From Sneathiellales bacterium (lineage in GTDB: Bacteria; Pseudomonadota; Alphaproteobacteria; JANQFL01), in NCBI GenBank assembly GCA_028277845.1, contig JANQFL010000070.1:62001-126000 (forward strand): a DNA stretch of 64,000 nucleotides, in the 5' to 3' direction. Below, piece by piece: positions 40,389 through 59,480 of the stretch (within the stretch, counting starts at the first letter, position 1; each line of letters starts with the position of its first letter). The translations under genes were made by a program, and so were the position numbers. Below the pieces are notes generated by a model. It was not told the DNA's origin and ran no database searches. It saw only the letters and a program-made list of their open reading frames with translations.

Positions 40389-42896
40389 ATGAAGAACGTC
40401 GCCGATATCTATCCCCTTTCGCCCATGCAGGAGACCATGCTGCTGCACGCGATCTCCCGGCCCGGCGACGATGTCCTGTTCAATCAGTTCGTCTACGAAA
40501 TTAACGGGGATTTGGATCAATCGGCCATGCGTGGCGCCTGGCAGGCACTCGTCGACAGGCACGCCATTCTGCGCTCCGCATTTGTATGGGAAGATGTCAA
40601 GCAACCGCTTCAGGTCGTCCGTATTTCGGTCGATCTGCCCTACCGGCAGTACGATTGGCGGCAAAAAGGCGGCGCCGAACGGGACACGGCTCTGGAAGCG
40701 CTGCTCGACGCGGATCGCGAAAGCGGGTTTGCCCTCGGTGAAGCCCCGCTGACCAGGCTGTGTGTCATCCGTATGGACGAGAACCGTCACGTCATGGTGT
40801 GGAGCAGCCACCACCTGCTGGTCGATCGCTGGTGTCTGGGGACATTGTTTACGGAACTGGCGGAACTTTACAACGCAAGCCGGTCCGGCCGTGCACCGCA
40901 GTTGAATGAAGCGCGGCCCTATCGGGACTATATCGGCTGGATTGCCCGCCAGGACGACAATGCGGGGCGGCAGTTCTGGCACCACCGCCTTGCCGGCATG
41001 AGGGAGCCGGTGCCGCTGACCACATGGTGCGGGAAAATCGATCAGCCGCGCGAACGCCAGGCGACGTTGACGCTGGACGACGACGTCCGTGCCGGATTGA
41101 CGGCGCTTTCCCGGCGGCTCGGCGTGACACCAAGTACCTTCCTGCAAGGTGCATGGGCGTTGACAATCAACCGCATAACCGGTCGGCAAGACGGCGCATT
41201 CGGCATCGTTACGTCCGGGCGGCCGCCCGACTTGCCGCACGTGGAAGGCATTGTCGGCACGTTCATCAACAATCTGCCCGTCCGTATGCGCATGCCGCGG
41301 CAAATGACGATGCAGAGTTGGCTCAAGGCATTGCAGGCCGAACAGCAGGCGCGCATGCCGTTTGAGCACGTTTCCCCGACCGACATTGATCTGATTGCCG
41401 GGTCCGCTCCCGGCAGCCGTCTGTTCGACAACTTGTTCCTCTGGCTCGCGGGCGAAGCGTTGCCGCAGTTCGACGGCATCTCGTTGCGCGCGGTGTCGGG
41501 AGACATGTCGACCGCGGTGCCGCTTACTCTGAGTGTTTCCGAAAACGACGAACTGGCGCTGGAGCTGCGCTGTCAGGCAGGGGTGGACACCGTGATGCCG
41601 TTCGACGACATCCTGCCTTGCCTGCTGAATGTGATGCAGGGACTGCTGGCCGCCGATCCTGCGGGCCCGCTGGCGGATCTACCGGGTTTCCGGCTGGATG
41701 CGGAGGAACCGGACGATATCCCGGCACCGGACTCGAAGGAAATTGCTGTCGCGGCAGCGTCCGGGGGAGGCGTGTCGCCGGCCAGCGAGGCTGTTCCCGG
41801 TGGGCGCGAAGCAGCGGATTACGAAACCATTCGGGATTTGATGACGGGTGCCTGGCAGGAGGTTCTTGGGAAAGTACACGTCGATGCCGACGACAACTTC
41901 TTCGATATCGGCGGTAACTCCATCCTGGCGGCACAACTGCACGCGCTTGCGGAGCGAAGGGTCGGAAAACGCATTCCGATGCTCGCTCTTTTCAAGGCGC
42001 CGACGATCCGCGACATGGCCAGAACCTTGGCGAACGACGAATGGCCCCTTAGCGGCCAGGTGATTACGCCGTTACGCACCCAGGGTACTTTGCCGCCGCT
42101 GTTCTGCATCTCATCACCCGAGGTTAATTCGGTCGGTTACGCATTGCTGGCACAGCACCTCAATCATGAGCGGCCCGTCTATGTCCTGCAGGCGCCGCCA
42201 CAGTCCGGCACCGTCACGAAGATATCCCCGAAAGCGTTGCCGGAATTGGCGAGCACTTACATTGCGGCCATGCGTGAAGTCCAGGAGGCGGGTCCATATC
42301 ACTTGCTGGGTATGTGTACGGGGTCGCACCTGGCGCATAGAATAGCGGTGCAGCTTGAAGCCGAAGGGCAGGCGGTTCCTTTCGTCGGAATCGTAAACAC
42401 CTGGGCGCTCAACACCATTTCCAAGTTTTACTACGTACAACGCGTGATTAACCGGTTGAGGTATTACCGCGGCAGACTCCGTGAATTGGCCCGTCAAAAG
42501 CCCAGCGAGCAACTGGCGGTATTGAGCCAGGTGGCGGCGCGGCGGTTTTCGCGTGCCGCACAGGCCGTTGCGCCAGTATCCGGATTTGGGGATGGCGCCA
42601 CGACCACTCCGTCTCCTGTTTCCGATGCATCACAGCGTGACGAATGGATCGAGGATGTTGGTTGGGCTACCGGCGACAACGATGCGCCGAAGTTCGGCGG
42701 TACGGTCACGGTTTTTCGTCTGCGGCGGCAAAGTTGGTGGCGGATCCGCGACAGGGGACTCGGCTGGGGCTTGCACGCCGATCATGTGGATATCATCGAT
42801 TGTCCTGGCGACAGTCACTTGACCATTCTACGCAATCCCAACGTCGGGTCGCTGGCCGAACGGCTGCAAGCGTCCCTGGTCGACATGACGCACTAG
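40389..42896 (+). CDS. NRPS terminal module: condensation - carrier - thioesterase (C-T-TE), no adenylation domain
   Basis: 835 aa. C domain residues ~5-430 with HHLLVDRW (H141, H142, D146). Carrier domain ~480-550, phosphopantetheine Ser511 in DIGGNSILA. Type I thioesterase ~565-830: the nucleophile elbow is G641-M-C643-T-G645, so Cys replaces the usual Ser; His810 lies in PGDSHLTIL; the usual acidic residue after the next strand is Asn670 in GIVNTW. There is no A domain, so the carrier is either loaded in trans or the C domain uses another acceptor. Although first in the operon, TE makes it the last biosynthetic step. Cys thioesterases are known for strained or unusual release (for example obafluorin beta-lactone). 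Confidence 0.9.
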   Translation: MKNVADIYPLSPMQETMLLHAISRPGDDVLFNQFVYEINGDLDQSAMRGAWQALVDRHAILRSAFVWEDVKQPLQVVRISVDLPYRQYDWRQKGGAERDTALEALLDADRESGFALGEAPLTRLCVIRMDENRHVMVWSSHHLLVDRWCLGTLFTELAELYNASRSGRAPQLNEARPYRDYIGWIARQDDNAGRQFWHHRLAGMREPVPLTTWCGKIDQPRERQATLTLDDDVRAGLTALSRRLGVTPSTFLQGAWALTINRITGRQDGAFGIVTSGRPPDLPHVEGIVGTFINNLPVRMRMPRQMTMQSWLKALQAEQQARMPFEHVSPTDIDLIAGSAPGSRLFDNLFLWLAGEALPQFDGISLRAVSGDMSTAVPLTLSVSENDELALELRCQAGVDTVMPFDDILPCLLNVMQGLLAADPAGPLADLPGFRLDAEEPDDIPAPDSKEIAVAAASGGGVSPASEAVPGGREAADYETIRDLMTGAWQEVLGKVHVDADDNFFDIGGNSILAAQLHALAERRVGKRIPMLALFKAPTIRDMARTLANDEWPLSGQVITPLRTQGTLPPLFCISSPEVNSVGYALLAQHLNHERPVYVLQAPPQSGTVTKISPKALPELASTYIAAMREVQEAGPYHLLGMCTGSHLAHRIAVQLEAEGQAVPFVGIVNTWALNTISKFYYVQRVINRLRYYRGRLRELARQKPSEQLAVLSQVAARRFSRAAQAVAPVSGFGDGATTTPSPVSDASQRDEWIEDVGWATGDNDAPKFGGTVTVFRLRRQSWWRIRDRGLGWGLHADHVDIIDCPGDSHLTILRNPNVGSLAERLQASLVDMTH

Positions 42897-43106: not shown

Positions 43107-44258
43107 ATGGATTTTGACTGGTCGGATGAACAGCTTAACTTTAAGGCCAGAGTTGTTGAGTTTGCGCGTCAGCAACTGAACAACGATACCGTTGAACGTG
43201 ATCGCAACGGTGCTTTCTCCTTGCAGGATTGGAAACGGAGTGCAGCGTTCGGTATTCAACGAATGTCCGTTCCGGCGGCGTATCACCAAGGAGACGAAAC
43301 AGATTTCCTGACCGCCATGCTGGCGATGGAGGGATTGGGATACGGGTGCAGGGACAACGGCCTGACCTTTGCGCTCAACGCGCAGATGTGGACCGTGCAG
43401 TTGCCGATCGTCCACTTTGGTACCGAGGCGCAAAAGGAAAAATACCTGCCCGGCCTCTGTTCCGGCGACTTGATCGGAGCGCATGCGATTACAGAACCCG
43501 ATGCGGGATCGGATGTTTTCAACATACGCACGACGGCGGAAAAGCAACCCGGTGGCGGGTACGTTTTGAATGGCGAAAAGCGTTATATTTCGTTGGCTCC
43601 CATTGCCGACATTGCACTTGTGTTCGCCACCATTGATCCGGACATCGGTAAGTGGGGTATCACGGCTTTTCTCGTCGATCTCAAGGCACCGGGCGTGCGC
43701 ACCGGCCCGGTGCGCGACAAGATGGGCCTGCGCACGGTCCCGATGGGCGATCTCTTTTTTGAGAATGTTCATTTGCCCGAAGAAGCCAGGCTCGGGAAAG
43801 ATGGCACGGGCCTCAGCCTATCCACGAATTCCCTGGAATGGGAGCGCTGCTGCATCCTGGCCAGCCAGCTGGGCGCCATGGAACGGCAGCTGGAAGAGTG
43901 CGTCGCCTTCGCCCGCGACCGCGAGCAGTTCGACCAGCCCATCGGCAAGTTCCAGTCCGTGGCCAACCGGATCGCCGACATGCGCCTGCGGCTCGAAACC
44001 TCGCGCCTGCTTCTCTACAAGGTGGCCTGGCTGAAAAGCGAAGGGCGGCCGGCGATGATGGAGGCAGCGCTGCTGAAACTGCATCTCAGCGAATGCTTCG
44101 TGGACTCGAGCCTCGATGCCATCCGTATCCACGGCGGGCACGGCTATATGAGCGAGGCGGAAATCGAACGCAATCTGCGCGACGGCATCGGCGGCACGAT
44201 CTATGCCGGCACGTCGGATATCCAGCGCAACATCGTGGCCGGTCTGTTGGGCCTGTAG
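43107..44258 (+). CDS. Acyl-CoA-dehydrogenase-like L-prolyl-carrier protein dehydrogenase (PltE/RedW type)
   Basis: 383 aa flavoprotein. Family parts: AHAITEPDAGSDVFNIRTTA, RDREQFDQPIGKFQSVANR, IRIHGGHGYMSEAEIERNLR. The catalytic base is in the isovaleryl-CoA-dehydrogenase position, LEWER (E244/E246), while the usual C-terminal Glu is Ala in IYAGTSDIQR. That combination, plus the following prolyl-type adenylation enzyme and free carrier, marks the enzymes that oxidise prolyl-S-carrier to pyrrole-2-carbonyl-S-carrier in pyoluteorin, undecylprodigiosin and coumermycin pathways. Needs FAD. The 3' neighbour starts after 24 bases. Confidence 0.85.
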   Translation: MDFDWSDEQLNFKARVVEFARQQLNNDTVERDRNGAFSLQDWKRSAAFGIQRMSVPAAYHQGDETDFLTAMLAMEGLGYGCRDNGLTFALNAQMWTVQLPIVHFGTEAQKEKYLPGLCSGDLIGAHAITEPDAGSDVFNIRTTAEKQPGGGYVLNGEKRYISLAPIADIALVFATIDPDIGKWGITAFLVDLKAPGVRTGPVRDKMGLRTVPMGDLFFENVHLPEEARLGKDGTGLSLSTNSLEWERCCILASQLGAMERQLEECVAFARDREQFDQPIGKFQSVANRIADMRLRLETSRLLLYKVAWLKSEGRPAMMEAALLKLHLSECFVDSSLDAIRIHGGHGYMSEAEIERNLRDGIGGTIYAGTSDIQRNIVAGLLGL

Positions 44259-44282: not shown

Positions 44283-45869
44283 ATGGCTTTCACTTTGCCG
44301 CAACTGGTCGACGAATGGGCGGAACGCACACCCGATGCCGACGCCATCGGCTTCCTCGGCGAACGCCTGACCTACGCCGAGTTGTCCAGGCGCTCCGACG
44401 CTCTGGCGCGCGCCCTAATCGACGCCGGCGTGCGGCGTACCGACCGGGTCGGCATCCACATGGACAAAAACCTGCACACGGCGGTGGCCATGTACGGCAT
44501 CATGAAGGCCGGCGCGGCCTATGTGCCGCTGGACCCCTCGGCGCCGCCGCAACGCACCGCCGGCGTGATAGGGGATTGCGGCATCCGCCACCTGATCACG
44601 GACGACGCCATGGCGGCCGGCCTGCGCGCCATGGCGGATGCGCTGCCGGACGCGATGTGCCTGATCGGCGTCACGCCGGACCGGGGCTTGCCGGGCCGCG
44701 CCATCCCGTGGGACGCGGTCGCCACCCTTGACGGCAGCACCGCCGCCTTGCCCGCCGTGATCGAGAACGATCTCGCCTATATCATTTACACCTCCGGCTC
44801 GACCGGCGTGCCCAAGGGCATCATGCACACCCATCACAGCGGCCTGAGCTTCGCCCGCTGGGCCGTGCGGGAATACGGCTTCCGCAACGACGACCGCTTG
44901 GGCAATCACGCGCCGCTGCATTTCGATCTGTCGATCCTGGACTTCTTCGCCGGTGCCCTGGCCGGCGCCGCCACTGTCTTGATACCGGAGGAATACACCC
45001 GGCTGCCGGCGAGCTACTCGAAACTGATCGCCGATCAGAGGATCACCGTGCTGTTCACGGTGCCGTTCGCCCTGATCCAGTTGCGCACCAAGGGCGTGCT
45101 GCACGACCGCGACCTGGGCGCGTTGCGCTGGATCCTGTTCGGCGGCGAGCCGTTTCCGACCAAGTATCTGCGCAAGCTGATGGCAGACCTGCCCCATGTC
45201 CGGTTCGACAACATCTACGGCCCGGCCGAAGTCAACGGCGTGACCCACTATGTCGTCACATCGGTGGGCGAGGATGACCAGTCCGTGCCCATCGGACCCA
45301 TCGCCGACATCGCCGAGGACCTGGTCGTGGATGACAACGACGAACCGGTCCCGGTGGGCGAAATCGGCGAACTGCTGGTGCGCACGCCGACCATGATGCA
45401 GGGCTATTGGGAGCGGCCTGAACTCAACGCCAAGGCGTTTTACCGGCGGCCCGTCAGCTCGACCTACGATCACGTGTTCTACCGCACCGGCGATCTGGTC
45501 CGCAAAGGCGCCGACGGCATTTTCGAGTTTCTCGGACGCAAGGACCGGCAGGTCAAGGTGCGCGGATACCGCGTCGAGCTGGACGAAACGGAAGCGGCGC
45601 TCGTGGCCGACGAAACCGTCGAGGAAGCGGCGGTGTTCGCCGTGCCGCTGGCGGACGGCACCCAGGAAATCCGCGCGGCCGTCATTCTGAACGGTGCGGC
45701 CGGGGCGACCAAGAACGAGTTGCTGAACGGACTGCGCGACCGCGTGCCCTGGTACGGCCTGCCGGCCGACCTGGTGATCCACGACAGTTTTCCGCGTACT
45801 TCGACGGGCAAGATCGACAGGAAGGTTCTCCGCGCGCAGGCCATGGAGAACATGGAAGAAACGGCATGA
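44283..45869 (+). CDS. Stand-alone adenylation enzyme, L-prolyl-AMP ligase type (PltF/RedM-like)
   Basis: 528 aa single A domain. Core motifs: LAYIIYTSGSTGVPKGIMHT, IYGPAEVNGVTHYVV, FYRTGDLVRKGADG, DRQVKVRGYRVELDE, RTSTGKIDRKVL. HFDLSILDFFAGALAGAATV and the rare GPAEVNGVTHY segment are characteristic of the proline activators that serve pyrrole-forming carriers. It would load L-proline on the carrier protein encoded next. Pocket positions read by eye as D-L-L at the first three. ATP-dependent, cytosolic. Separated by 24 bases from both neighbours, so the three genes form a compact starter set. Confidence 0.85.
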   Translation: MAFTLPQLVDEWAERTPDADAIGFLGERLTYAELSRRSDALARALIDAGVRRTDRVGIHMDKNLHTAVAMYGIMKAGAAYVPLDPSAPPQRTAGVIGDCGIRHLITDDAMAAGLRAMADALPDAMCLIGVTPDRGLPGRAIPWDAVATLDGSTAALPAVIENDLAYIIYTSGSTGVPKGIMHTHHSGLSFARWAVREYGFRNDDRLGNHAPLHFDLSILDFFAGALAGAATVLIPEEYTRLPASYSKLIADQRITVLFTVPFALIQLRTKGVLHDRDLGALRWILFGGEPFPTKYLRKLMADLPHVRFDNIYGPAEVNGVTHYVVTSVGEDDQSVPIGPIADIAEDLVVDDNDEPVPVGEIGELLVRTPTMMQGYWERPELNAKAFYRRPVSSTYDHVFYRTGDLVRKGADGIFEFLGRKDRQVKVRGYRVELDETEAALVADETVEEAAVFAVPLADGTQEIRAAVILNGAAGATKNELLNGLRDRVPWYGLPADLVIHDSFPRTSTGKIDRKVLRAQAMENMEETA

Positions 45870-45893: not shown

Positions 45894-46166
45894 ATGAGTG
45901 AAGGATCGGTTGCGGCGAAGCTCGGAGAATTCATTTCGGGCGAATTGCTGGGCAACAGGCCCGTGAACGGTGACGACAATCTGTTGGCCGCCGGCATGGT
46001 CAGTTCGCTGGGCATGGTACGGCTTGTCGCCTACATCCTCGACACCTTCGGCTACGACGTCCCGCCCGAGGACTTCACCATCGAGAATTTTCGCACCATC
46101 AACGACCTCGACGCCTATCTTCAGCAGGCGCTGAACGGGGAAGGGGCGGCGGCCGATGCCCCTTGA
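45894..46166 (+). CDS. Free-standing peptidyl carrier protein for the pyrrole starter (PltL/RedO type)
   Basis: 90 aa acyl-carrier fold. The phosphopantetheine Ser is S38 in GMVSSLGMV, where a Ser replaces the usual Asp of DSL. Ends LDAYLQQAL as in PltL-type carriers. It would carry prolyl, then pyrrole-2-carbonyl, and hand it to the C domain of the next protein. Its stop lies 11 bases inside the next gene, an overlap consistent with stoichiometric coupling of starter carrier and first elongation module. Confidence 0.87.
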   Translation: MSEGSVAAKLGEFISGELLGNRPVNGDDNLLAAGMVSSLGMVRLVAYILDTFGYDVPPEDFTIENFRTINDLDAYLQQALNGEGAAADAP

Positions 46167-49100
46167 GCAGGAAAGCAGCCTCGCCGATCTGTCCAATCTG
46201 ACCCACAGTCAGGTGCTGATTTGGACGGGGCAGCTTTTGGCTCCGGACGACCCGCTATACAACATGGTGCTGGCGTTCCGCATCGGTGGCGCAGTGGATC
46301 CGGTCGTTTTCCAACAGGCCTTTCAGCGGCTGGTGGACGACTGCGATGTCTTGCGGACGGTGATCACGACCGAGAAGGGGGTTCCGCAGCAGCGGGTGCT
46401 GCCGGAGTTCGCCTACGCGGTGCCGCTTATCGATTTCAGCCAGGATGCCGCCCCGGAGCAACGCTATGCCGAGTGGCTCGCGCGCAGCAAGCAGCGCACA
46501 TTCGATCTGTCGCGCTGTCATTTCGATACGGCACTCGTCAAGTTGGGTGATGACGACTTCGTCTGGTATCTGAACCAGCATCATGTCCTGACGGACGCGT
46601 GGTCCGTGTCCGTGCTGTACCGGAAAATGCAGCACTATTACGGGCTGGCGCGGCAGGGCAGGCTGGACCAGGCCGAACCGCTGCCGGCGTATCAGGATTA
46701 CGTTGCGCAGGACCGCCGGGACCGCCGGTCGGACCGGTACGCCAAGGCACAGGCCTTTTGGTCGGAGAAACTCAAAACGCCGGTGCCGCCGTCCAGCTTC
46801 TACCGCAGGCGCGGCAGCACGCGCAGTGGCCGGACCGTCCGGATCCCGTGCCGTTTGGGTGCGGAGCGAACGCGGCGGGTGCGTGCACTGACCGGGGACC
46901 GCGCATTCCAAGCCTTTACCCCGGATTTGGCGCTGTTCCAGATCTTCGCCACCGTGCTGTTCGCCTATCTGCACCGGCTGAGCGGACAGCGCGCCGTTTC
47001 CATCGGGGCGCCGGCCCACAACCGCACCACGGCGGAGCAACAGGAATCGGCCGGGCTGTTCATCGAAGTGTTTCCGTTGTCGGCCGAAATCGGGGAGGCG
47101 GACAGTTTCGCCGATTTGTACAGGACGGTCTCGGCGGACGCCCGGCATTTCCTGCTCAACGCGGTACCGGGCACCGGCGGAGCGGAGACCAATCGCGCTT
47201 TCGACGTGATTCTCAATTACATCACTGCCCGCTTCGGCGACTTCGACGGACTGCCCATGCGTTCCGAATGGGTCCATGCCGATCATGGCGACGCCAATCA
47301 TCTGCTGCGGCTGCAAGTGCAGGACTTCGATCAGACGGAAGATCTCGAACTGTATTTCGACCTCAACGAAGCGGTCTTCGTGAACGCGGAACGGCAATGG
47401 GTGGGCGATCATTTCCTGCGCTTGCTGGACGCGCTGCTCGACGACCCCGACACCGAGATCGCGTCCGTGCCGCTGTTGTCCGACGATGAATTCGGCCGGT
47501 TCGAGAGCGAAGTGAACGCGTCGCCGGACGTGCCGCCCGAAGGCGAGACGGTGATACAGATGTTCGAGGCGCAGGTAGCGAAAACGCCGCAGGCGACGGC
47601 ACTGAGGTGTGAGGACGCTGCCCTCACATATCAGGACCTCAACGCGCGCGCCAACCGCGTCGCCCACGACCTGAGCGGTCGCGGGATTGGTCCCGGCAAT
47701 ACAGCGGCCATTTCGATGATGCGGTCGGTGGATATGGTGGTGGCGATATTCGGCGTCCTGAAAAGCGGCGCCGCCTACGTGCCGGTGGACCCGGGATATC
47801 CCGCCGACAGGGTCGCCTATTTGCTGGAAAACTCGGGCGCCGACCTGATCATCGTCGACGACCATGCCGCCGGCATGATCCCCGCCATCGACGTGCCGGT
47901 GGCCAAGCTCGCCGATTTGGGAGACGTAGGCGATGCGGCCGCCACCGGCAATCCGCCAAACCGGGCGGGCTCCGATGACACGGCATACGTCATGTATACG
48001 TCCGGATCGACCGGGCGGCCCAAGGGTGTTGCCATCGGCCATGACGGGTTGGCCAATTACGTATCCTGGTGCAAGCGATTCTATCTGCGGGGCGACGTGC
48101 TCGATTTTCCCTTGTTCACGTCGTTCTCGTTCGACCTGACCGTCACGTCACTTTATGTCCCGCTGGTTTCGGGCGGCACGCTGGTCGTCTATCCCGAACA
48201 TCCGGACCGGCGTGACGTGGACGTGCAGAAAGTCGTGGAAGACAACGCCGTCGATATCGTCAAGCTGACTCCGGCACACCTGTCCGTCGTTCAGAACACG
48301 GATTTCAGCACCTCGAGAATCCGCGCGCTGATCGTCGGCGGGGAAGATTTCAAATCCGATCTCGCCCGGATCATCAACCGGCGCTTCGGTGGTGACGTTG
48401 AAATCTACAACGAATACGGCCCGACCGAGGCCACCGTCGCCTGCGCCATCCATCGTTTCGACCGCGACGACGATACCGGGTCCTCGGTTCCCATCGGCCG
48501 GTCCATCGACAACCTGCAGGCCTATGTTCTGGATGCGGCGCGCCATCCGGTTCCTCAGGGCGTGACGGGCGAGATCCATATCGGCGGCGCCGGCGTGGCG
48601 AAAGGCTATGTCAACAACGCGGATGAGACAGCGGAGCGGTTCGTCGCGAACCCGTTTCGGCCGGGACAGCGCCTGTACAAGACGGGAGATCTCGGACGGT
48701 GGAACCCCGACGGCCGGCTGGACTACCTCGGACGCGCGGACACCCAGGTCAAGATCCGCGGCATCCGCATGGAACTGACCGAAATCGAGGGCGCCATACT
48801 GACCCATCCCGACGTATCCGAAACGGCCGCCGCTGTTTTCGAGCAGCGGCAATCTCCGTTACGCGCCGAAGAACAGGACTACTGCGTCCGCTGCGGTTTG
48901 TCGGGCAATCATCCCAGTGCGCAACTCGACGGGGATTGTCTTTGCCGATTGTGCCGGGTGTTCGAGAGCCAACGCGATCTGGCGATGGACTATTTCGGAA
49001 CCATGAACGAGTTGCGGTCCATCGCGCAAGACGTGAAGGCCTCCGCCCAGGGTCCGCACGACTGCATCATGCTGCTGAGCGGCGGCAAGGACAGCACATA

Positions 49101-51756
49101 CGCGCTATGCCAGCTGGTCGACCTGGGCCTGAAGCCGCTGGTCTTCTTTCTCGATAACGGCTTCATATCCGACGGTGCGAAGGCCAATATCCGCCGTATC
49201 GTCGACCAGTTGGGCCTGGATCTGCATGTCGGATCGACACCCGCCATGAACGACATATTCGTCGACAGCCTGAAACGGTTCAGCGACGTCTGCGACGGAT
49301 GCTTCAAGACCATCTACACGTTGAGCATGAACCTGGCGCGCGAGAAGGGCATCCGGTACATCTTCACCGGTTTGTCGCGCGGCCAGATCTTCGATACCCG
49401 GGTCGCGGATTTCTTCAATCAGCGGATCTTCGATCCCGATGAAATCGACCGCATGGTGATCGAGGCGCGCAAGGCGTACCACCGCATGGATGATGTGCCG
49501 TGCCGGAAACTGGACGTCGCGATGTTCAAGGACGATGCGGTGTTCGAAGAAATCCGCTTCGTCGATTTCTACCGCTACAGCGATGTATCGCTGGAAGGTA
49601 TTTTTGACTACCTCGACACCAAGGTGCCTTGGATCCGTCCGCTGGATACGGGCCGGTCCACCAACTGCCTGATCAACAAGGCCGGTATCCATGTTCACAC
49701 CAACGAACGGCGGTTCCACAACTACTCGTCGCCCTACAGTTGGGATGTCCGGCTGGGACACAAGAAAAGGGACGAGGCGCTTGCGGAACTGCAGGACGAC
49801 ATTGCGCCGGCCGAGGTGTACGACATCCTCCAGACCATAGGGTACCGAAGCGAAATCGCGGCCGCCGAGGACAAGCGACTGGTGGCCTACTATGTATCGC
49901 CGGTTCGGCTGCCCGCCGGGGAACTGGAGCGTCATCTGGCCGCCAAGCTCCCATCCGAATTCGTGCCCAAGGACTTCGTCCGGCTCGACAGCCTTCCTCT
50001 GACCGCCAATGGAAAGGTCGATCGCAGGGCACTGCCCGAGCCGGATGACGGGACCGGCGAACGGCCGGGCACGTTTATCGCCCCGGGCACGGAGACCGAA
50101 AAGGCCCTGGCCAGGATCTGGCGGCAGGTTCTGGGCTTGGATGATATCGGTATCCACGACGATTTCTTTGCCCTGGGGGGCGATTCGATTCACGGCATTC
50201 AGATCGTCAACCAGGCGCGGCGTGTCGGCCTGACGATCAATCCGCAACAAATCTTCGATCATCCCACCATTGCCGAGCTGGCCGCCGCCGCCGGGTCGGT
50301 GGCCGTCCGGCAGGCCGAGCAGGGCGCGGTCACCGGCCTCGTCGCACTGACACCGGCGCAGCGCCGGTTTTTCGATCAGCACGGTCCCGATCCCGAACCG
50401 TACAGCCAGGCCGTTTTGCTCGAAATCGAAGACGGCCTGGATATCGCGACGCTTGAAAACGCCATCCGTGAGGTCCTCGTCCATCATGATGGCCTACGAT
50501 GCAGTTTTTCGCGTACGGAATTGGGATGGCATGGTGTGCTGCATGACATCGACACGGCCGCGATTGCCATCGATTGGGTCGACCTGATCGGAACGCCGCC
50601 GGATGGGATCAGGGCCGCCATCGACCGGCATGCCCGGTCGGTCCACAAGACCCTCGACATCGGTGCGGCACCACTGTTCCGGGCGTGCCGTTTTTCGACG
50701 CCGGAAGGCGGCCCCGACTTGCTTCTCTTCATCGTCCATCACCTTGTGATCGACGGATTGTCCTGGCGGATCATGCTCGAAGACCTGGAAACGGCCTGCG
50801 AACAACTGATCGCGGGGCGCCGGGTCCGGCTGCCGGCCAAAACGGCATCACAGAAGGACTGGACCGAGGCTTTGCAGGACTACGCCTTTTCGGACGAACT
50901 GCGGGAGGAAACAGCCTATTGGACCAACACCACCGACGTGAATGCGGCGCTTCCGGGCCAATTGCCCCCGGGAACAGTCGACCGGCACGTGGAAGCGAGC
51001 ACCGTTTCCGCCGCCCTGACCAGGGATGAGACCCGTCAACTGATACACGATCTGCCGCAAGCCCTGGATATCCGCCTGCCCGAGGTTTTGGCGACGGCCT
51101 TGGCGCAGTCCTTCGCGGACTGGGCGGGCAGGGATGGCATCCTTGCCGATTTTGAAGGCCATGGCCGGGAGGCGATCGCCGACGGCCTGGATCTTCTGCG
51201 CTCGGTCGGATGGTTCACGTCCGTGTATCCCGTTGGCCTGCAATTGGGGCACTGCACCGGGTCCGTAGCGGCGATGAATGCGGTCAAGCGGCAGTTCCGG
51301 TCCGTTCCGAACCGGGGCATCGGGTATGGCGTGTTGCGTTACCTGGCGGGTGACAACGGAGCCCGCACCGCGCTGGAGCAACGCCCACAAGCGGACCTTT
51401 TGTTCAATTTCCTTGGCCACTGGGACAAAACGATTTCGGCGGAATCCAGGTTCCGGTTCACCGGGCCGGTTTATGTGTATTGGGGAGACGACAGCCGGCG
51501 CGCCTATGCGCTGGAGGCCAATGCGGCGGTGTTTGACGGCGCGTTCGTCATCGACTGGACGTTCAACGAGCGGCGTCACGCGCGCGCCGAGATCGAACGG
51601 TTTTCCGATACCTACATGCACCATCTGCGCCGCTTGATTGCCGACGGTGTGCGGGGAAGCGCCGAGGACCGGGCGGAGCCGGATTTCTCGCACGCCGACC
51701 TCGATGAACAGGGAATGGCCGATGTGCTCGCAGAATTCGGTCAGGACGCGGATTGA
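46156..51756 (+). CDS. NRPS elongation module C - A (interrupted by a PP-loop ATPase domain) - T - E
   Basis: 1866 aa. C ~15-430 (HHVLTDAWS, H142/H143, D147). A core ~463-890: YTSGSTGRPKGVAIGH, IYNEYGPTEATVACA, YKTGDLGRWNPDGR, QVKIRGIRMELTEIE. Residues ~905-1235 are a foreign domain: zinc-ribbon-like CVRCGL...CLCRLC, PP-loop SGGKDST (975-981), CDGC (1046-1049). A9-A10 resumes ~1240 with LPLTANGKVDRR. T: Ser1344 in LGGDSIHG. E ~1390-1800: HHLVIDGLSW, FEGHGREA, VGWFTSVYPV. Pocket by eye D-L-T-K-I-G-E-V-A, close to asparagine codes. The insert resembles N-acetyl-sugar amidotransferases (WbpG), which convert an amide into an amidine. Accepts pyrrole-carbonyl and yields a D-residue. Confidence 0.9.
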   Translation: MPLEQESSLADLSNLTHSQVLIWTGQLLAPDDPLYNMVLAFRIGGAVDPVVFQQAFQRLVDDCDVLRTVITTEKGVPQQRVLPEFAYAVPLIDFSQDAAPEQRYAEWLARSKQRTFDLSRCHFDTALVKLGDDDFVWYLNQHHVLTDAWSVSVLYRKMQHYYGLARQGRLDQAEPLPAYQDYVAQDRRDRRSDRYAKAQAFWSEKLKTPVPPSSFYRRRGSTRSGRTVRIPCRLGAERTRRVRALTGDRAFQAFTPDLALFQIFATVLFAYLHRLSGQRAVSIGAPAHNRTTAEQQESAGLFIEVFPLSAEIGEADSFADLYRTVSADARHFLLNAVPGTGGAETNRAFDVILNYITARFGDFDGLPMRSEWVHADHGDANHLLRLQVQDFDQTEDLELYFDLNEAVFVNAERQWVGDHFLRLLDALLDDPDTEIASVPLLSDDEFGRFESEVNASPDVPPEGETVIQMFEAQVAKTPQATALRCEDAALTYQDLNARANRVAHDLSGRGIGPGNTAAISMMRSVDMVVAIFGVLKSGAAYVPVDPGYPADRVAYLLENSGADLIIVDDHAAGMIPAIDVPVAKLADLGDVGDAAATGNPPNRAGSDDTAYVMYTSGSTGRPKGVAIGHDGLANYVSWCKRFYLRGDVLDFPLFTSFSFDLTVTSLYVPLVSGGTLVVYPEHPDRRDVDVQKVVEDNAVDIVKLTPAHLSVVQNTDFSTSRIRALIVGGEDFKSDLARIINRRFGGDVEIYNEYGPTEATVACAIHRFDRDDDTGSSVPIGRSIDNLQAYVLDAARHPVPQGVTGEIHIGGAGVAKGYVNNADETAERFVANPFRPGQRLYKTGDLGRWNPDGRLDYLGRADTQVKIRGIRMELTEIEGAILTHPDVSETAAAVFEQRQSPLRAEEQDYCVRCGLSGNHPSAQLDGDCLCRLCRVFESQRDLAMDYFGTMNELRSIAQDVKASAQGPHDCIMLLSGGKDSTYALCQLVDLGLKPLVFFLDNGFISDGAKANIRRIVDQLGLDLHVGSTPAMNDIFVDSLKRFSDVCDGCFKTIYTLSMNLAREKGIRYIFTGLSRGQIFDTRVADFFNQRIFDPDEIDRMVIEARKAYHRMDDVPCRKLDVAMFKDDAVFEEIRFVDFYRYSDVSLEGIFDYLDTKVPWIRPLDTGRSTNCLINKAGIHVHTNERRFHNYSSPYSWDVRLGHKKRDEALAELQDDIAPAEVYDILQTIGYRSEIAAAEDKRLVAYYVSPVRLPAGELERHLAAKLPSEFVPKDFVRLDSLPLTANGKVDRRALPEPDDGTGERPGTFIAPGTETEKALARIWRQVLGLDDIGIHDDFFALGGDSIHGIQIVNQARRVGLTINPQQIFDHPTIAELAAAAGSVAVRQAEQGAVTGLVALTPAQRRFFDQHGPDPEPYSQAVLLEIEDGLDIATLENAIREVLVHHDGLRCSFSRTELGWHGVLHDIDTAAIAIDWVDLIGTPPDGIRAAIDRHARSVHKTLDIGAAPLFRACRFSTPEGGPDLLLFIVHHLVIDGLSWRIMLEDLETACEQLIAGRRVRLPAKTASQKDWTEALQDYAFSDELREETAYWTNTTDVNAALPGQLPPGTVDRHVEASTVSAALTRDETRQLIHDLPQALDIRLPEVLATALAQSFADWAGRDGILADFEGHGREAIADGLDLLRSVGWFTSVYPVGLQLGHCTGSVAAMNAVKRQFRSVPNRGIGYGVLRYLAGDNGARTALEQRPQADLLFNFLGHWDKTISAESRFRFTGPVYVYWGDDSRRAYALEANAAVFDGAFVIDWTFNERRHARAEIERFSDTYMHHLRRLIADGVRGSAEDRAEPDFSHADLDEQGMADVLAEFGQDAD

Positions 51757-51770
51757 CGGGGCGGCGGGAC

Positions 51771-54596
51771 ATGTCACGGGATAACAACATACAGGCCGTC
51801 CGCCGGCTGACCCCGATCCAGGAAGGCATTCTTTTTCATACCCTGGAGGCCAAGCGCAGCGGCGTTTATTTCGAGCAGTACAGTTGCCTGTACGAGGGAC
51901 GGGTGGACACCGACAGATTGCGGCGGGCATGGTTTAGGGTTGTCGAGAGGCACGAAGTGCTGCATACCCTGTTTACCTGGGAAGGCCGCGACAAACCGCT
52001 GCAGATCGTGCGTCATACGGTGCCGTTGCCGTGGGAGGAACTGGACTGGCGCGATGCCGACGAGCATGAAGCCGCCGAGCGCTGGCAAGATTTCCTCGAC
52101 CGCGACCGCGCGCGCGGTTTCGAGCTGGACAAGGCGCCGCTGATCCGCCTGACCCTGGTGCGGGTGGCGGACGACCGCTACCGGTTTCTGTGGTCGTTTC
52201 ATCATCTGCTGATCGATGGCTGGTCGATGCGGCTGATCCTCAACGAAGTGACGGCGCTGTATGCCGGCGGCGACGGGTCCAGCCCGTTGCCCAGACCGCG
52301 ATCCTTCGGCGATCTGATCGCGTGGATGGAGGGTCAGGACACCGCGAAACAGGAAGCCTTCTGGACCGACGCGTTGAGCGGGTTCACCGAACCGACGTCC
52401 CTGTCGGCCATTGTCGGAAGCCAACAATTGCCCGTTTCCGGGCATCCGCACGACACGCAGGAAACCGTTCTCGACGCATCGCTGACCGCGCAGGTCCGCG
52501 CATTCGCCCGGGCCGAGCGCCTGACGTTGAACACCGTTCTTCTGGGGGCCTGGTCGCTGGTTCTCGGCCGTTACTGCGACAGGGCGGATGTGGTGTTCGG
52601 GACCACGGTGTCGGGCCGGCCGGCGGAACTGGATGGCGTCGACGGCATCGCCGGCATGTTCATCAATACGCTGCCATTGCGTGTTGACATTCCGGAAAAC
52701 GAGACGCCTGGCGCCTGGCTGTCGCGGCTGCAGGCCAGACAGATGGCCATGCGTGCCCATGAGCAGACGTCGCTGGCGGCGGTGCAGCGCTGGAGCGACG
52801 TTCCCGCGGGTTCGGCGTTGTTCGAAAGCATATTCGTTTTCGAAAACTTCCCCGAAAAAGCGGCGGGCGGTGCGCTGGTGCCCGAGCTGTACCCGCGGGA
52901 TGAACGGTACATCGAGTACAGCAATTATCCGCTGGCCATTTTGGCGGTGCCGGGCGAACAGATACGGCTGATTGCGGTCCACGATCCGGCCATATTCACG
53001 GCTGAGACGGCGAAACGGCTGCTGGAGAACTTGGCCACGGCGGTGGCCTCTCTGACCGCCGCCGCAACGGAGACGGTGTCGGCCGTCACCATCGTGCCGG
53101 CAGCCGAAAGGACGCGGCTGCTGGAGCAGTGGAACCGGACCGCGGCACCCTATCCGTCCGACCGGTGTATCCATCATCAGATCGAGCATTTCGCCCGGAC
53201 CACGCCGGATGCCGTCGCCTTGGCCGATACCGGGACGGCGGTCAGCTATGACGAATTGGACTCCAGAGCCAACCGGTTGGCCGTATTGCTGCAGAGCCGG
53301 GGGATCGGTGTCGGTGCCATCGTGCCCGTGTTTCTGGACCGCGGCATCGATGCAATAGTCGCCATGCTCGCCGTTCTGAAAGCCGGTGGTGCCTATGTCC
53401 CGCTCGACCCGACATTCCCGAAGGACCGTATTCGTCACATTCTCGAGGACATTGCGGCGGCAGACACGGGCCGGACCGGGCAACTGATCGTTCTGAGCAA
53501 CGTCGCGCTCTCGCACAATCTCCCAACGTCGGTTGTCGAGCCCGTCTGCCTCGACGACGGCGATCTTCCGTCCGATACCGGTCCGTTTGTCGAACCCGGT
53601 GTCACGCCGGACGACCTGGCCTATGTCATATACACCTCCGGGTCGACGGGACGGCCGAAAGGCGTCATGGTCACGCACCGGAATCTGGTCAACTCGACCC
53701 ACGCGAGACACGCGTTCTTCGGGGAACCGCTGTCGTCCTTCCTGCTGCTCTCTTCCCTGGCGACCGACAGTTCGGTCGCGGGCACGTACTGGGCGCTCTG
53801 CTCCGGTGCAAGCCTGGTCCTGCCGCCCCGACGCATCGAACAGGACATACCGGCCTTGACCGACCTGGTCGCCCGCCGGCAGGTCTCGCACTATCTCTGT
53901 GTGCCATCGCTGCATGCACTCATTCTCGAGCACAGTTCGGCTGATCGGCTTGCAAGCTTGAAGGGCGTCATGGTTGCGGGTGAGGCATGCACCGAAGATG
54001 TGGTGCTGAACCACTACACCGCACTGCCCGACGTGACTTTGTACAACGAATACGGACCAACCGAAGCAACCGTCTGGGCAACCGGGTGCACGTTGAAACC
54101 GGGCGAACCGGTGAGTATTGGCCGCCCCATCGCGAATACGACGGCGTACGTACTGGATTCCCATCAGCGCTTGTTGCCGGCCGGCGTACCGGGTGAGTTG
54201 TGCATCGGCGGCGTCAACGTGGCCCGGGGGTATCTCAATCAACCGGAACTCACGGCCGAGCGTTTCATTACCGACCGCTACGCGGACGATCATGGTGCGC
54301 GGCTCTATCGAACCGACGATCTGGTGCGGCACCGGGAGGACGGCACCATCGTGTTTCTGGGCCGGGTCGACAATCAGGTCAAGATCCGCGGTTTCCGCGT
54401 CGAACCGGAGGAAATCGAACGAGTCATCCTGGAATGCGGAGCGGTGAGCGAGGCTGCCGTCATTGCCACGGGGACCGGTTCGGACGGCGCCGACCCCACG
54501 GCACTGCTGTCGCAGTTGCAGGCGATGCCATCCGACGAGGCCGAACGACTGCTCACCGAAATCGAAACGCTGGAGATGGAGGCGGCGGCGATATGA
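51771..54596 (+). CDS. NRPS C - A core (adenylation domain lacking its C-terminal subdomain)
   Basis: 941 aa from the ATG at 51771 (a TTG at 51753 overlaps the previous stop). C domain ~10-440 opens VRRLTPIQEGILFHTL, a pattern fitting a D-residue donor, with HHLLIDGWS (H144/H145, D149). A core ~465-890: YTSGSTGRPKGVMVTH, VTLYNEYGPTEATVWATG, RTDDLVRHREDG (TGDL altered), QVKIRGFRVEPEEIE (A8). It then ends with an acidic helix (LLTEIETLEMEAAAI) instead of A9-A10. The missing subdomain opens the protein encoded two genes on, with a methyltransferase between: an interrupted A domain split into separate genes. Pocket by eye D-S-A-L-M-A-E-V-W; no confident substrate. Confidence 0.9.
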   Translation: MSRDNNIQAVRRLTPIQEGILFHTLEAKRSGVYFEQYSCLYEGRVDTDRLRRAWFRVVERHEVLHTLFTWEGRDKPLQIVRHTVPLPWEELDWRDADEHEAAERWQDFLDRDRARGFELDKAPLIRLTLVRVADDRYRFLWSFHHLLIDGWSMRLILNEVTALYAGGDGSSPLPRPRSFGDLIAWMEGQDTAKQEAFWTDALSGFTEPTSLSAIVGSQQLPVSGHPHDTQETVLDASLTAQVRAFARAERLTLNTVLLGAWSLVLGRYCDRADVVFGTTVSGRPAELDGVDGIAGMFINTLPLRVDIPENETPGAWLSRLQARQMAMRAHEQTSLAAVQRWSDVPAGSALFESIFVFENFPEKAAGGALVPELYPRDERYIEYSNYPLAILAVPGEQIRLIAVHDPAIFTAETAKRLLENLATAVASLTAAATETVSAVTIVPAAERTRLLEQWNRTAAPYPSDRCIHHQIEHFARTTPDAVALADTGTAVSYDELDSRANRLAVLLQSRGIGVGAIVPVFLDRGIDAIVAMLAVLKAGGAYVPLDPTFPKDRIRHILEDIAAADTGRTGQLIVLSNVALSHNLPTSVVEPVCLDDGDLPSDTGPFVEPGVTPDDLAYVIYTSGSTGRPKGVMVTHRNLVNSTHARHAFFGEPLSSFLLLSSLATDSSVAGTYWALCSGASLVLPPRRIEQDIPALTDLVARRQVSHYLCVPSLHALILEHSSADRLASLKGVMVAGEACTEDVVLNHYTALPDVTLYNEYGPTEATVWATGCTLKPGEPVSIGRPIANTTAYVLDSHQRLLPAGVPGELCIGGVNVARGYLNQPELTAERFITDRYADDHGARLYRTDDLVRHREDGTIVFLGRVDNQVKIRGFRVEPEEIERVILECGAVSEAAVIATGTGSDGADPTALLSQLQAMPSDEAERLLTEIETLEMEAAAI

Positions 54597-55384
54597 CGAA
54601 ACGGCTCAAACGCCACCGCGACTTCGAAATCTCGGTGCAGATCAAAAACGACGACTTCATTCGGCCGCCCCGCGACGCGCAACGCAATTGGTTGTTGAAC
54701 GGGACCTTGAACGAGTTTTCGGACAACTTGCTGGCGCTGAATACCCTGGCGCGCCGCTATGTGCCGGGTTCGGATGCGCTGCCCACAGGCGATCGAAGCC
54801 AGGCCGTGATGCACGATGAAGACATCATGGAAGACTGGCAACTGCCGCTGATGCAGGCCATGGCCGAGGGGGTGACCGAGGGTCACGGCCATGTGCTGGA
54901 AATCGGTTTTGGGCGCGGCGCCGCATCCACCATGATCCAGCGGTGCGGCGTCGAAAGCCACACCATTATCGAATGCAACGACTCCATCGTCGGACGTTTC
55001 AATACCTGGAAGGACGACTATCCGGGACGGGATATCAAAATGGTGCACGGCATGTGGCAGGATACCCTGCCGTCCCTCGGCACCTTCGACGGCATATTCT
55101 TCCACACCTATCCGCTGAACGAAGCCGAATTCGTCGAGCAGATCGGCGAAAGCACCACGTTTGCGGAGCATTTCTTCGAACATGCGGCGCAGCACTTGGT
55201 GGACGGCGGGCGTTTCACCTATCTGTCCAACGAAATGGATTCCCTGAGCCGGACTCACCAGCGGCTGCTGTTCCGTTACTTCGATCGCATCTCGATCCGG
55301 ATCGTCGAGAACCTGAACCTGCCGGAGACTGTCAGGGACGCCTGGTGGGCCGATTCGATGGCCGTTGTCGTGGCGTTCAAGTAG
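54593..55384 (+). CDS. SAM-dependent N-methyltransferase, guanidinoacetate/arginine type (GAMT/RMT2-like)
   Basis: 263 aa, start in ATGA overlap with the preceding stop after a clear GGAGG. Features strikingly like guanidinoacetate methyltransferase: DIMEDWQLPLMQAMA, SAM loop VLEIGFGRGAAST, SHTIIECNDSIVGRF, HGMWQDTLPSLGTFDGIFF, HTYPLNEAEF and GGRFTYLSNEMD. That family methylates guanidino nitrogens. It occupies exactly the gene position where interrupted adenylation domains carry an embedded methyltransferase (between A8 and A9), so it probably assembles with the A halves on each side and methylates a guanidino or amidino side chain of a carrier-bound residue. Cytosolic. Confidence 0.87.
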   Translation: MTKRLKRHRDFEISVQIKNDDFIRPPRDAQRNWLLNGTLNEFSDNLLALNTLARRYVPGSDALPTGDRSQAVMHDEDIMEDWQLPLMQAMAEGVTEGHGHVLEIGFGRGAASTMIQRCGVESHTIIECNDSIVGRFNTWKDDYPGRDIKMVHGMWQDTLPSLGTFDGIFFHTYPLNEAEFVEQIGESTTFAEHFFEHAAQHLVDGGRFTYLSNEMDSLSRTHQRLLFRYFDRISIRIVENLNLPETVRDAWWADSMAVVVAFK

Positions 55385-55388
55385 GCGG

Positions 55389-57410
55389 ATGATGGGTATG
55401 GAAACGACGGAGCGCACTTTGCAGGAACGGCTGAACGCCCTGTCGCCCGGGCAACGCGCCGAACTGGCGCGCCGGTTGTCCGGCAACGCCGGTCCGCGGC
55501 GGACGGAGCGGGACGCCCTGATCGCCTTTGTGGTCGGCCGGAACGGGGCGGTGGACGAAGACGCCGTGCGGGCGCGTCTGCGCGACCGTCTGCCCGACTA
55601 CATGGTGCCGCGCGATATCGTGGTGCTCGACTCGCTGCCGCGGCTGCCCAACGGCAAGATCGACCGCAACGCCTTGCATGCCGTCGATTGGACGCAACCG
55701 GAACCCGACGGGAGCGACATCGTCGCGCCGCGAAACGAGGCCGAACGGACCTTGTCGGATATATGGTGCGATGTGCTCGGACTCGACAGCGTCAGCATCC
55801 ATGACGATTTTTTCGAAGTCGGCGGCGATTCGTTGATCAGTATCCGTATTCTTTCGCGCGCCAATCAGGCCGGCTTGAAAATCAGACCCGAGCTGTTCTT
55901 CGAATATCCGACCATCGCCGGGCAAGCGGCCGCCTCCGGCGGGGCTACGGTCGTCACAGCCGAACCCGGCCTGGTGACGGGCACGATGCCTTTGATGCCT
56001 ATACAGCACTGGTTCTTCGAGAGAATTCCGGTCGATCCCCAACAGTGGAACCAGTCGGCGCTGTACACCGCGCCGGAAGGGTTCAGCGCCGACCGTCTGG
56101 AACGCAGCGTTCAGCATCTGATGAAGCATCACGATGCCCTGCGTCTGCGGTTCCCAATGGCCGGCGGGAAACGCCAAGCGACGTTCGATGACATGCCGGC
56201 GGAGCTGCCCGTGGTGCACGTCGACCTGTCCGGCGCCGATCCATCCGACGTCGAGGGCGAGATCGTGAAAACCGCCGAAAAGTATCATGCCCGGTTCGAT
56301 CTCGAGACCGGTCCGCTGGTCTGTTTTGTCCATTTCACCCTACCGGCCGGGCAGGACGCAAAAGTCCTTGTCATCGTGCATCATCTACTGGTTGATGCCG
56401 TTTCCTGGTGTTTGCTCAGCGAGCACTTCGACTTGATTTGTGGTCAGATTATGAGCGGCGAGGCCATCGCCCTGCCGGACAAGACAACGTCGCTTCAACA
56501 GTGGGCGATGCGGCTGAAGAACCGGGCTGAAGCACAGGACATCCAGTCGGAAGCCGCTTACTGGCGCGGCAACCTTGCCGAGGAAGGCGATCGGCTGCCG
56601 ACGGATTTTCCCGCGGAGGTCACCGACAATCGTTTTGCCGATACCGAGTATGTGTCCCGGTCCCTGGATGAGGAGGCGACGCAAACCCTGTTGCAGGACG
56701 TCTGCCAACGGCACAGGGCGCAAATCGACGAAATCCTGATGGCCGCGCTCGCCGGCACGGTCTGTGCCTGGACCGGGCGACCATCGGTGACATTCGATCT
56801 GGAGGGGCATGGCCGGGAGGCCATGTTCGACGACATGGATGTGTCGCACACCGTCGGTTGGTTTACGACCGTCTTTCCGGTGCGTATCGCGCTGGGGCAA
56901 AGCGACGAAACGGCCGACCATCTTGCCTCGGTCAAGGACCGGTTGCGCCGGATCGCCAATGGCGGCATCGGATACGGCTTGCTGCGGGACATGATGCCGG
57001 GCACGGAGATATCCGACGCGCTTCGCCAAGCGCCCAGGTCCGAACTGCTGTTCAACTATCTTGGACAGGTGGATTTGCTGGCCGGCGAGTTGAAGCATCT
57101 GCGGCTGGAAGACGACCAGTTTACGGCGGCGCGCAGTCCTCGCGGCATCCGAGCCTACGTTCTTGAAGTCAATGCGCGGATATCGTGCGGTAGGCTCCGG
57201 GTGGATTGGTCCTACGCTTCGCGTTTGCACAACCGTGACACCGTATTGGGGCTGGCGAACGATTTCATGGCGCGCCTGCAATCGTTGATCGGTTCGCACG
57301 GAGAGGAATCGCAACCCGTGGTGACCGCCGCCGATTTCCCGCTCGCAAACCTCGATCAAGACGAATTCGCCGCATTGGCGCAACTGCTCGACGAAGACAA
57401 TAAACAATAG
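55389..57410 (+). CDS. NRPS A C-terminal subdomain - T - E
   Basis: 673 aa from the ATG at 55389; ATGs at 55392 and 55398 are alternatives. Residues 1-45 form a short helical linker (LNALSPGQRAELARRLSG). Residues ~50-100 are the adenylation C-terminal subdomain with RLRDRLPDYMVPRDIVVLDS and A10 LPRLPNGKIDRNAL, whose Lys completes the active site of the core encoded two genes upstream. Carrier domain: Ser148 in VGGDSLIS. E domain ~200-640: HHLLVDAVSW (H331/H332, D336), LEGHGREAMF, VGWFTTVFPV, GGIGYGLLRD, FNYLGQ. It completes module two and gives a second D-residue, handed to the C-T-TE protein. Confidence 0.88.
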   Translation: MMGMETTERTLQERLNALSPGQRAELARRLSGNAGPRRTERDALIAFVVGRNGAVDEDAVRARLRDRLPDYMVPRDIVVLDSLPRLPNGKIDRNALHAVDWTQPEPDGSDIVAPRNEAERTLSDIWCDVLGLDSVSIHDDFFEVGGDSLISIRILSRANQAGLKIRPELFFEYPTIAGQAAASGGATVVTAEPGLVTGTMPLMPIQHWFFERIPVDPQQWNQSALYTAPEGFSADRLERSVQHLMKHHDALRLRFPMAGGKRQATFDDMPAELPVVHVDLSGADPSDVEGEIVKTAEKYHARFDLETGPLVCFVHFTLPAGQDAKVLVIVHHLLVDAVSWCLLSEHFDLICGQIMSGEAIALPDKTTSLQQWAMRLKNRAEAQDIQSEAAYWRGNLAEEGDRLPTDFPAEVTDNRFADTEYVSRSLDEEATQTLLQDVCQRHRAQIDEILMAALAGTVCAWTGRPSVTFDLEGHGREAMFDDMDVSHTVGWFTTVFPVRIALGQSDETADHLASVKDRLRRIANGGIGYGLLRDMMPGTEISDALRQAPRSELLFNYLGQVDLLAGELKHLRLEDDQFTAARSPRGIRAYVLEVNARISCGRLRVDWSYASRLHNRDTVLGLANDFMARLQSLIGSHGEESQPVVTAADFPLANLDQDEFAALAQLLDEDNKQ

Positions 57411-59422: not shown

Positions 59423-59480
59423 GGACGCCGCCGGTGCCGGCGGTTTGCCGGAACCGCCGGGTGGAAGGGGGAAAGACGCG

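What the first reader, a model, noticed from the sequence alone, without database searches (positions are those of the whole stretch)
46156..51756. Interrupted module appears to select asparagine: amide-to-amidine (or thioamide) conversion hypothesis
Pocket residues aligned by eye to PheA read D-L-T-K-I-G-E-V-A plus the A10 Lys, which differs from known Asn codes only around one position. An Asn side chain ends in a carboxamide, the same functional group that WbpG-type enzymes turn into an amidine. The module could therefore make a carrier-bound D-3-amidinoalanine (or the thioamide). The next enzyme in the line is a methyltransferase of the guanidino type, which would suit an amidine acceptor.
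Basis: inference. Interest (0 to 1): 0.8.

Follow-up and report, generated by a model that had tools for sequence, protein, structure and literature searches.

The report
Nitrile-making domain within a peptide synthetase
A peptide-building enzyme picks asparagine and carries a built-in ATP-using domain that, by analogy with two studied antibiotics, most likely turns the side-chain amide into a nitrile rather than the amidine first proposed; the same module recurs in many bacterial phyla with no product known to us.

Summary
Window 46156-51756 encodes C-A-PCP-E with a ~330-residue WbuX-like PP-loop domain inserted between A8 and A10. The pocket code reads DLTKIGEVA+K; the 75 other complete codes among 82 relatives all fit D[LM]TK[IVM]GEV[GA]K. 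Asn is well supported.

The amidine reading is not the best one. Papers describe a ~38 kDa SGGKD insert in Asn-activating A domains: AlbIV (albicidin; code DLTKIGEVGK) and CysH (cystobactamid, "AMDH"). CysH dehydrates carrier-bound Asn to beta-cyanoalanine (-18 Da). I therefore read the window insert as an AMDH domain: Asn-S-PCP to beta-cyanoalanyl-S-PCP, then epimerised. I could not fetch AlbIV or CysH for direct comparison.

The guanidinoacetate-type methyltransferase is no support for an amidine: it splits the A domain of the next module, whose code (DSALMAEVW) is one letter from a published His code.

New here: all 83 aligned inserts carry PP-loop plus CxxC...C, the hallmark of [4Fe-4S] PP-loop enzymes (TtuA, NcsA, LarE). 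The profile's best PDB hit is [4Fe-4S] LarE. This would explain the reported brown colour of CysH and keeps a thioamide outcome open. A His-type module accompanies it in 41 of 80 loci.

The parts
46156..51756 (+). NRPS gene, 1866 aa: C - A(interrupted) - PCP - E
46201..47505 (+). condensation domain (motif HHVLTDA in place of HHxxxDG)
   Evidence: boundaries approximate
47563..48840 (+). A domain, N-terminal part (A1-A8), pocket DLTKIGEVA
48874..49845 (+). inserted AMDH-type PP-loop domain (residues 907-1230, 37.0 kDa)
48883..48954 (+). tetracysteine motif C910-x2-C913 ... C930-x2-C933 (zinc-binding in the relative 8wex)
49078..49095 (+). PP-loop SGGKDS (ATP)
49291..49302 (+). C1046-x2-C1049, aligned with CxxC of [4Fe-4S] LarE
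49666..49668 (+). C1171, third invariant cysteine of CxxC...C
49873..50040 (+). A domain, C-terminal part with A10 Lys (LTANGKVDR)
50104..50289 (+). carrier domain (PCP)
50338..51654 (+). epimerization domain
   Evidence: E motifs by eye
40389..42896 (+). C - PCP - thioesterase, no A domain
43107..44258 (+). acyl-CoA dehydrogenase-like, closest to PigA/RedW (below their cut-offs)
44283..45869 (+). free-standing A domain of the starter
45894..46166 (+). free-standing carrier protein
51753..54596 (+). next module C - A(1-A8), pocket DSALMAEVW (His-type), stops after A8
54593..55384 (+). guanidinoacetate-methyltransferase-like gene inside the split A domain
55389..57410 (+). A(A10) - PCP - E-type domain of the split second module (ORF listed from 55365)
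57487..58698 (+). HupE/UreJ-family membrane protein

Best explanation
The insert is an AMDH-type domain. Shown by sequence: an Asn-type A domain, an in-cis PP-loop domain, a carrier and an epimerase in one chain. Inferred: the A domain loads L-Asn on the PCP; the insert binds ATP at SGGKDS, activates the side-chain carboxamide oxygen (as O-AMP or O-phosphate), and the activated imidate loses its leaving group and a proton to give the nitrile, beta-cyanoalanyl-S-PCP (+114 to +96 Da on the carrier). The E domain then gives the D residue, probably after condensation with the upstream acyl group (pyrrole-2-carbonyl is the best guess). No CysJ-like Asn hydroxylase lies on the contig, so the dehydratase branch, not the aminomutase branch, is expected. 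A [4Fe-4S] cluster on C1046, C1049 and C1171, with one free iron as Lewis acid at the amide, is a likely but unproven part of the mechanism.
For: Architecture, motif, size and code match published AlbIV/CysH: 342-aa or 38-kDa insert, SGGKD, Asn preferred in ATP-PPi exchange (AlbIV), AlbIV code DLTKIGEVGK. CysH incubated with Asn goes from +114 to +96; without AMDH it only loads Asn. The PP-loop (S, G, G, K, D, S) is invariant in 83 of 83 aligned inserts. All 82 relatives keep at least one flank of an A domain next to the insert in the same ORF, 80 of 82 both flanks; all 76 complete codes are Asn-type. Model pLDDT 92.5; folds found include nitrile synthetase ArtA (9lei, Z 11.2, rmsd 3.0, 169 aligned). 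No TauD match on contig C119 (4 elsewhere).
Against: AlbIV and CysH were not compared directly: no record named Xanthomonas or Cystobacter is among the 80 loci kept (of 223 found), so this clade is probably not their closest. The nearest fold and sequence family is an amidotransferase family. CxxC...C is otherwise known from sulfur transferases. AlbIV and CysH give L residues and feed a separate line; here an E domain follows. The product is unknown.
Confidence: 0.72

Rival explanations
1. One reading: the insert activates the Asn amide and ammonia adds, giving D-3-amidinoalanine.
For: TIGR03573 match (108 bits); closest solved fold is N-acetyl sugar amidotransferase 8wex; same tetracysteine and PP-loop.
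Against: Score far below the family cut-off of 203.2; CysH precedent is dehydration; no PF00117 amidotransferase on the contig; the two WbuX sequences that resemble WbpG as I recall it (L017, L022) lack the CxxC...C set that the insert has; AMDH rows and the nine WbuX rows separate in the tree (SH-aLRT 95).
Confidence: 0.07
2. Thioamide: the CxxC...C site holds a [4Fe-4S] cluster that passes a bound hydrosulfide to the ATP-activated Asn amide, as LarE and TtuA do, giving thio-Asn.
For: Invariant CxxC...C in 83 of 83 rows; best PDB profile hit is [4Fe-4S] LarE, with the CxxC aligned; TtuA/NcsA folds at Z about 12; LarE and TtuA chemistry.
Against: CysH, of the same architecture, gave the nitrile in vitro, and albicidin and Cys871 contain cyanoalanine; no sulfur carrier or desulfurase family was seen in the window genes scanned.
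Confidence: 0.1
3. Aminomutase branch: carrier-bound Asn (or beta-hydroxy-Asn) is turned into iso-Asn, as in cystobactamid.
For: The same domain in CysH does both reactions.
Against: In CysH the choice between the two reactions is said to depend on CysJ hydroxylation; the four TauD proteins of this genome lie on other contigs. Some iso-Asn was still made without CysJ in vivo, so this is not decisive.
Confidence: 0.07
4. The insert is catalytically silent and only positions the module; plain D-Asn is incorporated.
For: Not tested biochemically.
Against: The PP-loop and all seven cysteines are invariant in 83 of 83 aligned inserts.
Confidence: 0.04

Closest known systems
AlbIV (albicidin, Xanthomonas albilineans)
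   Same: Asn-activating A domain with a 342-aa SGGKD insert; code DLTKIGEVGK versus DLTKIGEVAK here; makes cyanoalanine (PMC12283262, PMC8949500, passages read)
   Different: Stand-alone A-T module acting in trans, L residue; here an in-line C-A-PCP-E module, D residue expected. Direct identity not measured.
CysH AMDH domain (cystobactamid, Cystobacter velatus)
   Same: 38-kDa insert with SGGKD in an Asn A domain; dehydrates carrier-bound Asn (PMC7966384, passages read)
   Different: Works with hydroxylase CysJ to give hydroxylated iso-Asn; no such gene on this contig. Direct identity not measured.
N-acetyl sugar amidotransferase / WbpG / WbuX (TIGR03573; 8wex)
   Same: PP-loop fold, N-terminal tetracysteine, closest solved structure
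   Different: Acts on sugars as a free enzyme; 14-15% identity over the fold; score below the family cut-off
[4Fe-4S] LarE, TtuA, NcsA
   Same: SGGxDS plus CxxC...C; LarE 8cnz is the best profile hit (E 2.5e-9)
   Different: Sulfur transferases on a nucleotide cofactor or tRNA; no N-terminal tetracysteine in the aligned part
ArtA nitrile synthetase (9lei/9leh) and QueC
   Same: PP-loop superfamily; ArtA is named for nitrile formation in its PDB title
   Different: Distant (Z 11.2, 15% identity); not embedded in an NRPS as far as the PDB title tells

Membership tests
AMDH domain (CysH/AlbIV type) | about 38 kDa domain inserted in an A domain | tested here: met
   residues 907-1230, 37.0 kDa, between A8 and A10
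AMDH domain (CysH/AlbIV type) | SGGKD ATP-binding motif | tested here: met
   SGGKDS at 49078-49095
AMDH domain (CysH/AlbIV type) | host A domain selects Asn | tested here: met
   DLTKIGEVA+K versus published DLTKIGEVGK; by code only
AMDH domain (CysH/AlbIV type) | clear sequence identity to CysH/AlbIV inserts | not tested
   sequences could not be fetched
AMDH domain (CysH/AlbIV type) | dehydrates carrier-bound Asn | not testable with these tools
   needs protein MS
AMDH as aminomutase (CysH with CysJ) | CysJ/SyrP-like hydroxylase in the cluster | tested here: not met
   4 TauD matches in the genome, none on contig C119; that CysJ belongs to TauD (PF02668) is recalled
N-acetyl sugar amidotransferase TIGR03573 | score above the curated cut-off | tested here: not met
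   108 versus 203.2 bits
N-acetyl sugar amidotransferase TIGR03573 | PP-loop and tetracysteine | tested here: met
N-acetyl sugar amidotransferase TIGR03573 | glutamine amidotransferase partner nearby (recalled for WbpG: HisH/HisF types) | tested here: not met
   14 PF00117 matches, none on C119
[4Fe-4S] PP-loop enzymes (TtuA/NcsA/LarE) | SGGxD[S/T] plus CxxC...C | tested here: met
   83 of 83 rows; LarE alignment; motif definition in PMC9821441
[4Fe-4S] PP-loop enzymes (TtuA/NcsA/LarE) | bound Fe-S cluster | not testable with these tools
   needs spectroscopy; CysH reported dark brown
Interrupted A domains | auxiliary domain between a8 and a9, in frame | tested here: met
   location rule in PMC8949500

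The most novel reading that the evidence does not exclude
AMDH domains are [4Fe-4S] enzymes of the TtuA/NcsA/LarE kind recruited into NRPS A domains: the three-cysteine cluster's free iron takes part in turning the ATP-activated Asn amide into a nitrile (or, in some clades, a thioamide), and a cyanoalanine-histidine assembly line built on it is spread over many phyla with no known product.
Probability: 0.55. Interest if true: 0.68.

Novelty: new member of a known kind. Interest (0 to 1): 0.52.

Why it matters
Carrier-bound nitrile formation is rare, and the authors of the CysH study call its mechanism unknown. If the CxxC...C set binds a [4Fe-4S] cluster, the brown colour they reported and the chemistry get a testable explanation and link nitrile formation to tRNA thiolation. 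The wide spread of the same Asn* module, often with a His-type module, points to a common, unidentified natural product.

Tried and rejected
Looked for AlbIV or CysH for direct comparison and failed: 398 genomes of the phylum held no other match at E <= 1e-50; a 16S pattern meant to mark Xanthomonadaceae matched 0 of 250 class genomes; plasmids gave 3 records, none of them these. Looked for a published product of this cluster: searches listed none that I recognised; one search listed no paper that I recognised as reporting an Fe-S cluster in AMDH. Only open-licence papers are held, so this is weak.

Tried to read the starter amino acid: the free A domain reads D-L-L-F-L-G-I-G-V by eye from the alignment, not a canonical Pro code as I recall it; the dehydrogenase is PigA/RedW-like but below cut-offs. 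A pyrrole starter is likely, not settled.

Families not listed by VIA-align were not used as negative evidence.

Bias to note: 65 of 80 loci match the scan pattern that contains the CxxC; 15 match only the PP-loop pattern. L026, L027, L113 and L114 came from protein searches. These 19 all keep the CxxC; C1171 is in neither pattern.
Full report
What was checked. The ORF at 46156-51756 is real and in frame. Pfam gives condensation, AMP-binding 470-818, AMP-binding_C 1240-1287, carrier 1317-1378 and a second condensation-type domain 1395-1833, which by motif is an epimerase. Residues 907-1230 form the insert; alone it matches TIGR03573 (WbuX, N-acetyl sugar amidotransferase) at 108 bits, below the cut-off of 203.2.

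Substrate. Reading the pocket on the alignment gives DLTKIGEVA with K at A10. PMC12283262 (passages read) treats DLTKIGEVGK among the Asn codes and states that it also serves the cyanoalanine module of albicidin; it also says that Asp and Asn domains share DLTKVGHVGK and that these classes can be hard to tell apart. CysH itself also loads Gln, iso-Asn and cyanoalanine in vitro. Asn is therefore well supported but by code only.

Relatives. In the window's class, 33 of 385 genomes match the insert at E <= 1e-12, but only three (the window's own, G183, G306) have a close copy (51% identity or more), all inside large ORFs. A scan of genome contigs with the three-sequence alignment found 223 relatives and kept 80 loci. 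With L026 and L027 this makes 82: every one has at least one A-domain flank in the same ORF and 80 have both (L067 and L073 lack one). All 76 complete pocket codes among the 83 rows fit D[LM]TK[IVM]GEV[GA]K; seven rows are incomplete. These sequences are related, so the codes are not independent. The origin labels in the tree name 16 phyla for the 80 loci, counted by eye; many are metagenome bins, so single assignments may be wrong.

Known counterpart. PMC7966384 (passages read) names a 38-kDa AMDH domain inserted in CysH, 69% identical to the one in AlbIV, with an SGGKD motif. CysH with Asn goes from +114 to +96; without AMDH it stays at +114; with the hydroxylase CysJ the domain acts as an aminomutase. 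The authors report numerous homologous domains in clusters of unknown function. PMC8949500 (passages read) describes the 342-aa SGGKD insert of AlbIV and Asn preference in ATP-PPi exchange. The window insert fits this in place, size, motif and host code. I could not fetch AlbIV or CysH, so membership rests on those features, not on measured identity.

Why not amidine. No glutamine amidotransferase (PF00117) lies on contig C119, though 14 lie elsewhere; the assembly has 124 contigs and is 98% complete, so a distant partner is possible. The methyltransferase is not evidence for an amidine acceptor: it overlaps the end of the next C-A gene (ATGA overlap at 54593), and the A10 half of that A domain follows it (55389 on). 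That A domain reads DSALMAEVW; PMC12283262 gives DSALIAEVWK for His. A His-type code is found in 41 of 80 loci, and a homologous methyltransferase in 17 of 80, all among those 41. Methylation of a His residue is the simpler guess.

Fold and a possible cofactor. The AlphaFold model has mean pLDDT 92.5. VIA-align ranks 8wex first (Z 20.3, rmsd 4.7, 300 aligned), then NcsA and TtuA (Z about 12; NcsA 6scy rmsd 4.0, 200 aligned), with ArtA nitrile synthetase at 11.2 (rmsd 3.0, 169 aligned). A profile of 83 inserts finds [4Fe-4S] LarE (8cnz, E 2.5e-9) before 8wex (9.6e-8), and the alignment lays VCNGC on LarE's CxxC. C1046, C1049 and C1171 are present in 83 of 83 rows, and in L113 and L114 by eye. 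PMC9821441 and PMC9283937 (passages) define PP-loop plus CxxC...C as the Fe-S hallmark, with TtuA C130, C133 and C222 as ligands. The CysH authors saw a dark brown protein and, finding no CxxCxxxC motif, thought a radical mechanism unlikely and left the metal open. I infer a three-cysteine cluster. Against over-reading: 65 of 80 loci match a scan pattern containing the CxxC; the 19 not so selected also keep it (15 loci, plus L026, L027, L113, L114). Seven of nine free-standing WbuX sequences also have CxxC plus a later Cys; L017 and L022 do not. The relative 8wex was found with zinc at the tetracysteine.

Cluster. Upstream lie a PigA/RedW-like dehydrogenase, a free A domain and a carrier, which suggest a pyrrole-type starter. 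Homologues of the free A domain (350 bits or more) are in 40 of 80 loci, of the dehydrogenase (250 bits or more) in 39, both in 34, of the HupE-like protein (100 bits or more) in 33; no hits at the set thresholds for the HTTM or aminotransferase genes (0 of 80). An E domain follows the AMDH module in 18 of 80. Many loci are cut by contig ends, so absences mean little. No TauD match is on the contig.

Verdict. Observation confirmed; Asn and amide activation supported; amidine unlikely; nitrile most likely. The module is a new member of a known kind. The CxxC...C finding and the spread of the Asn*-His line are the parts worth following.

Noticed in passing
window 51753-57410: The second module's A domain is split over three genes (C-A to A8; methyltransferase; A10-PCP-E). 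In 17 of 17 relatives with this methyltransferase the A gene shows no A10-like motif; the methyltransferase is a separate ORF in 14 and fused to A in 3 (L028, L042, L045); an A10-like motif starts the next ORF in 8 of 17 by a strict pattern.
   Followed up: partly
L028-L107: The interrupted Asn module together with a His-type module, starter A, dehydrogenase, carrier and HupE-like gene recurs across many phyla; 41 of 80 loci have the His-type code. Product unknown to me; HupE might hint at a metal link.
   Followed up: partly
L061, L058 (Microvirga, Bradyrhizobium) and L065 (Gemmatimonadetes): A minimal set: TubC_N-thioesterase, A(insert)-PCP and an acyl-CoA dehydrogenase, with a PPTase gene also beside it in L061. 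It suggests a one-residue product such as an unsaturated cyanoalanine.
   Followed up: no
L113 14001-14939 (Streptomyces plasmid NZ_CP108680.1): A 44% identical AMDH-type domain stands at the N terminus before a condensation domain, not inside an A domain, near asnB.
   Followed up: no
L027 33-8968: By eye: a formyltransferase-like start, then C-A(insert)-PCP, then a cyclisation-A-oxidase-PCP protein and a ketosynthase gene; not checked by family search.
   Followed up: no
window 58742-62431: Two genes without Pfam match (58742-59422, 59445-61169) and an HTTM/DCC1-like gene (61166-62431) follow HupE; the two unmatched genes have few relatives in the other clusters (1 and 3 of 80), the HTTM gene none.
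   Followed up: partly
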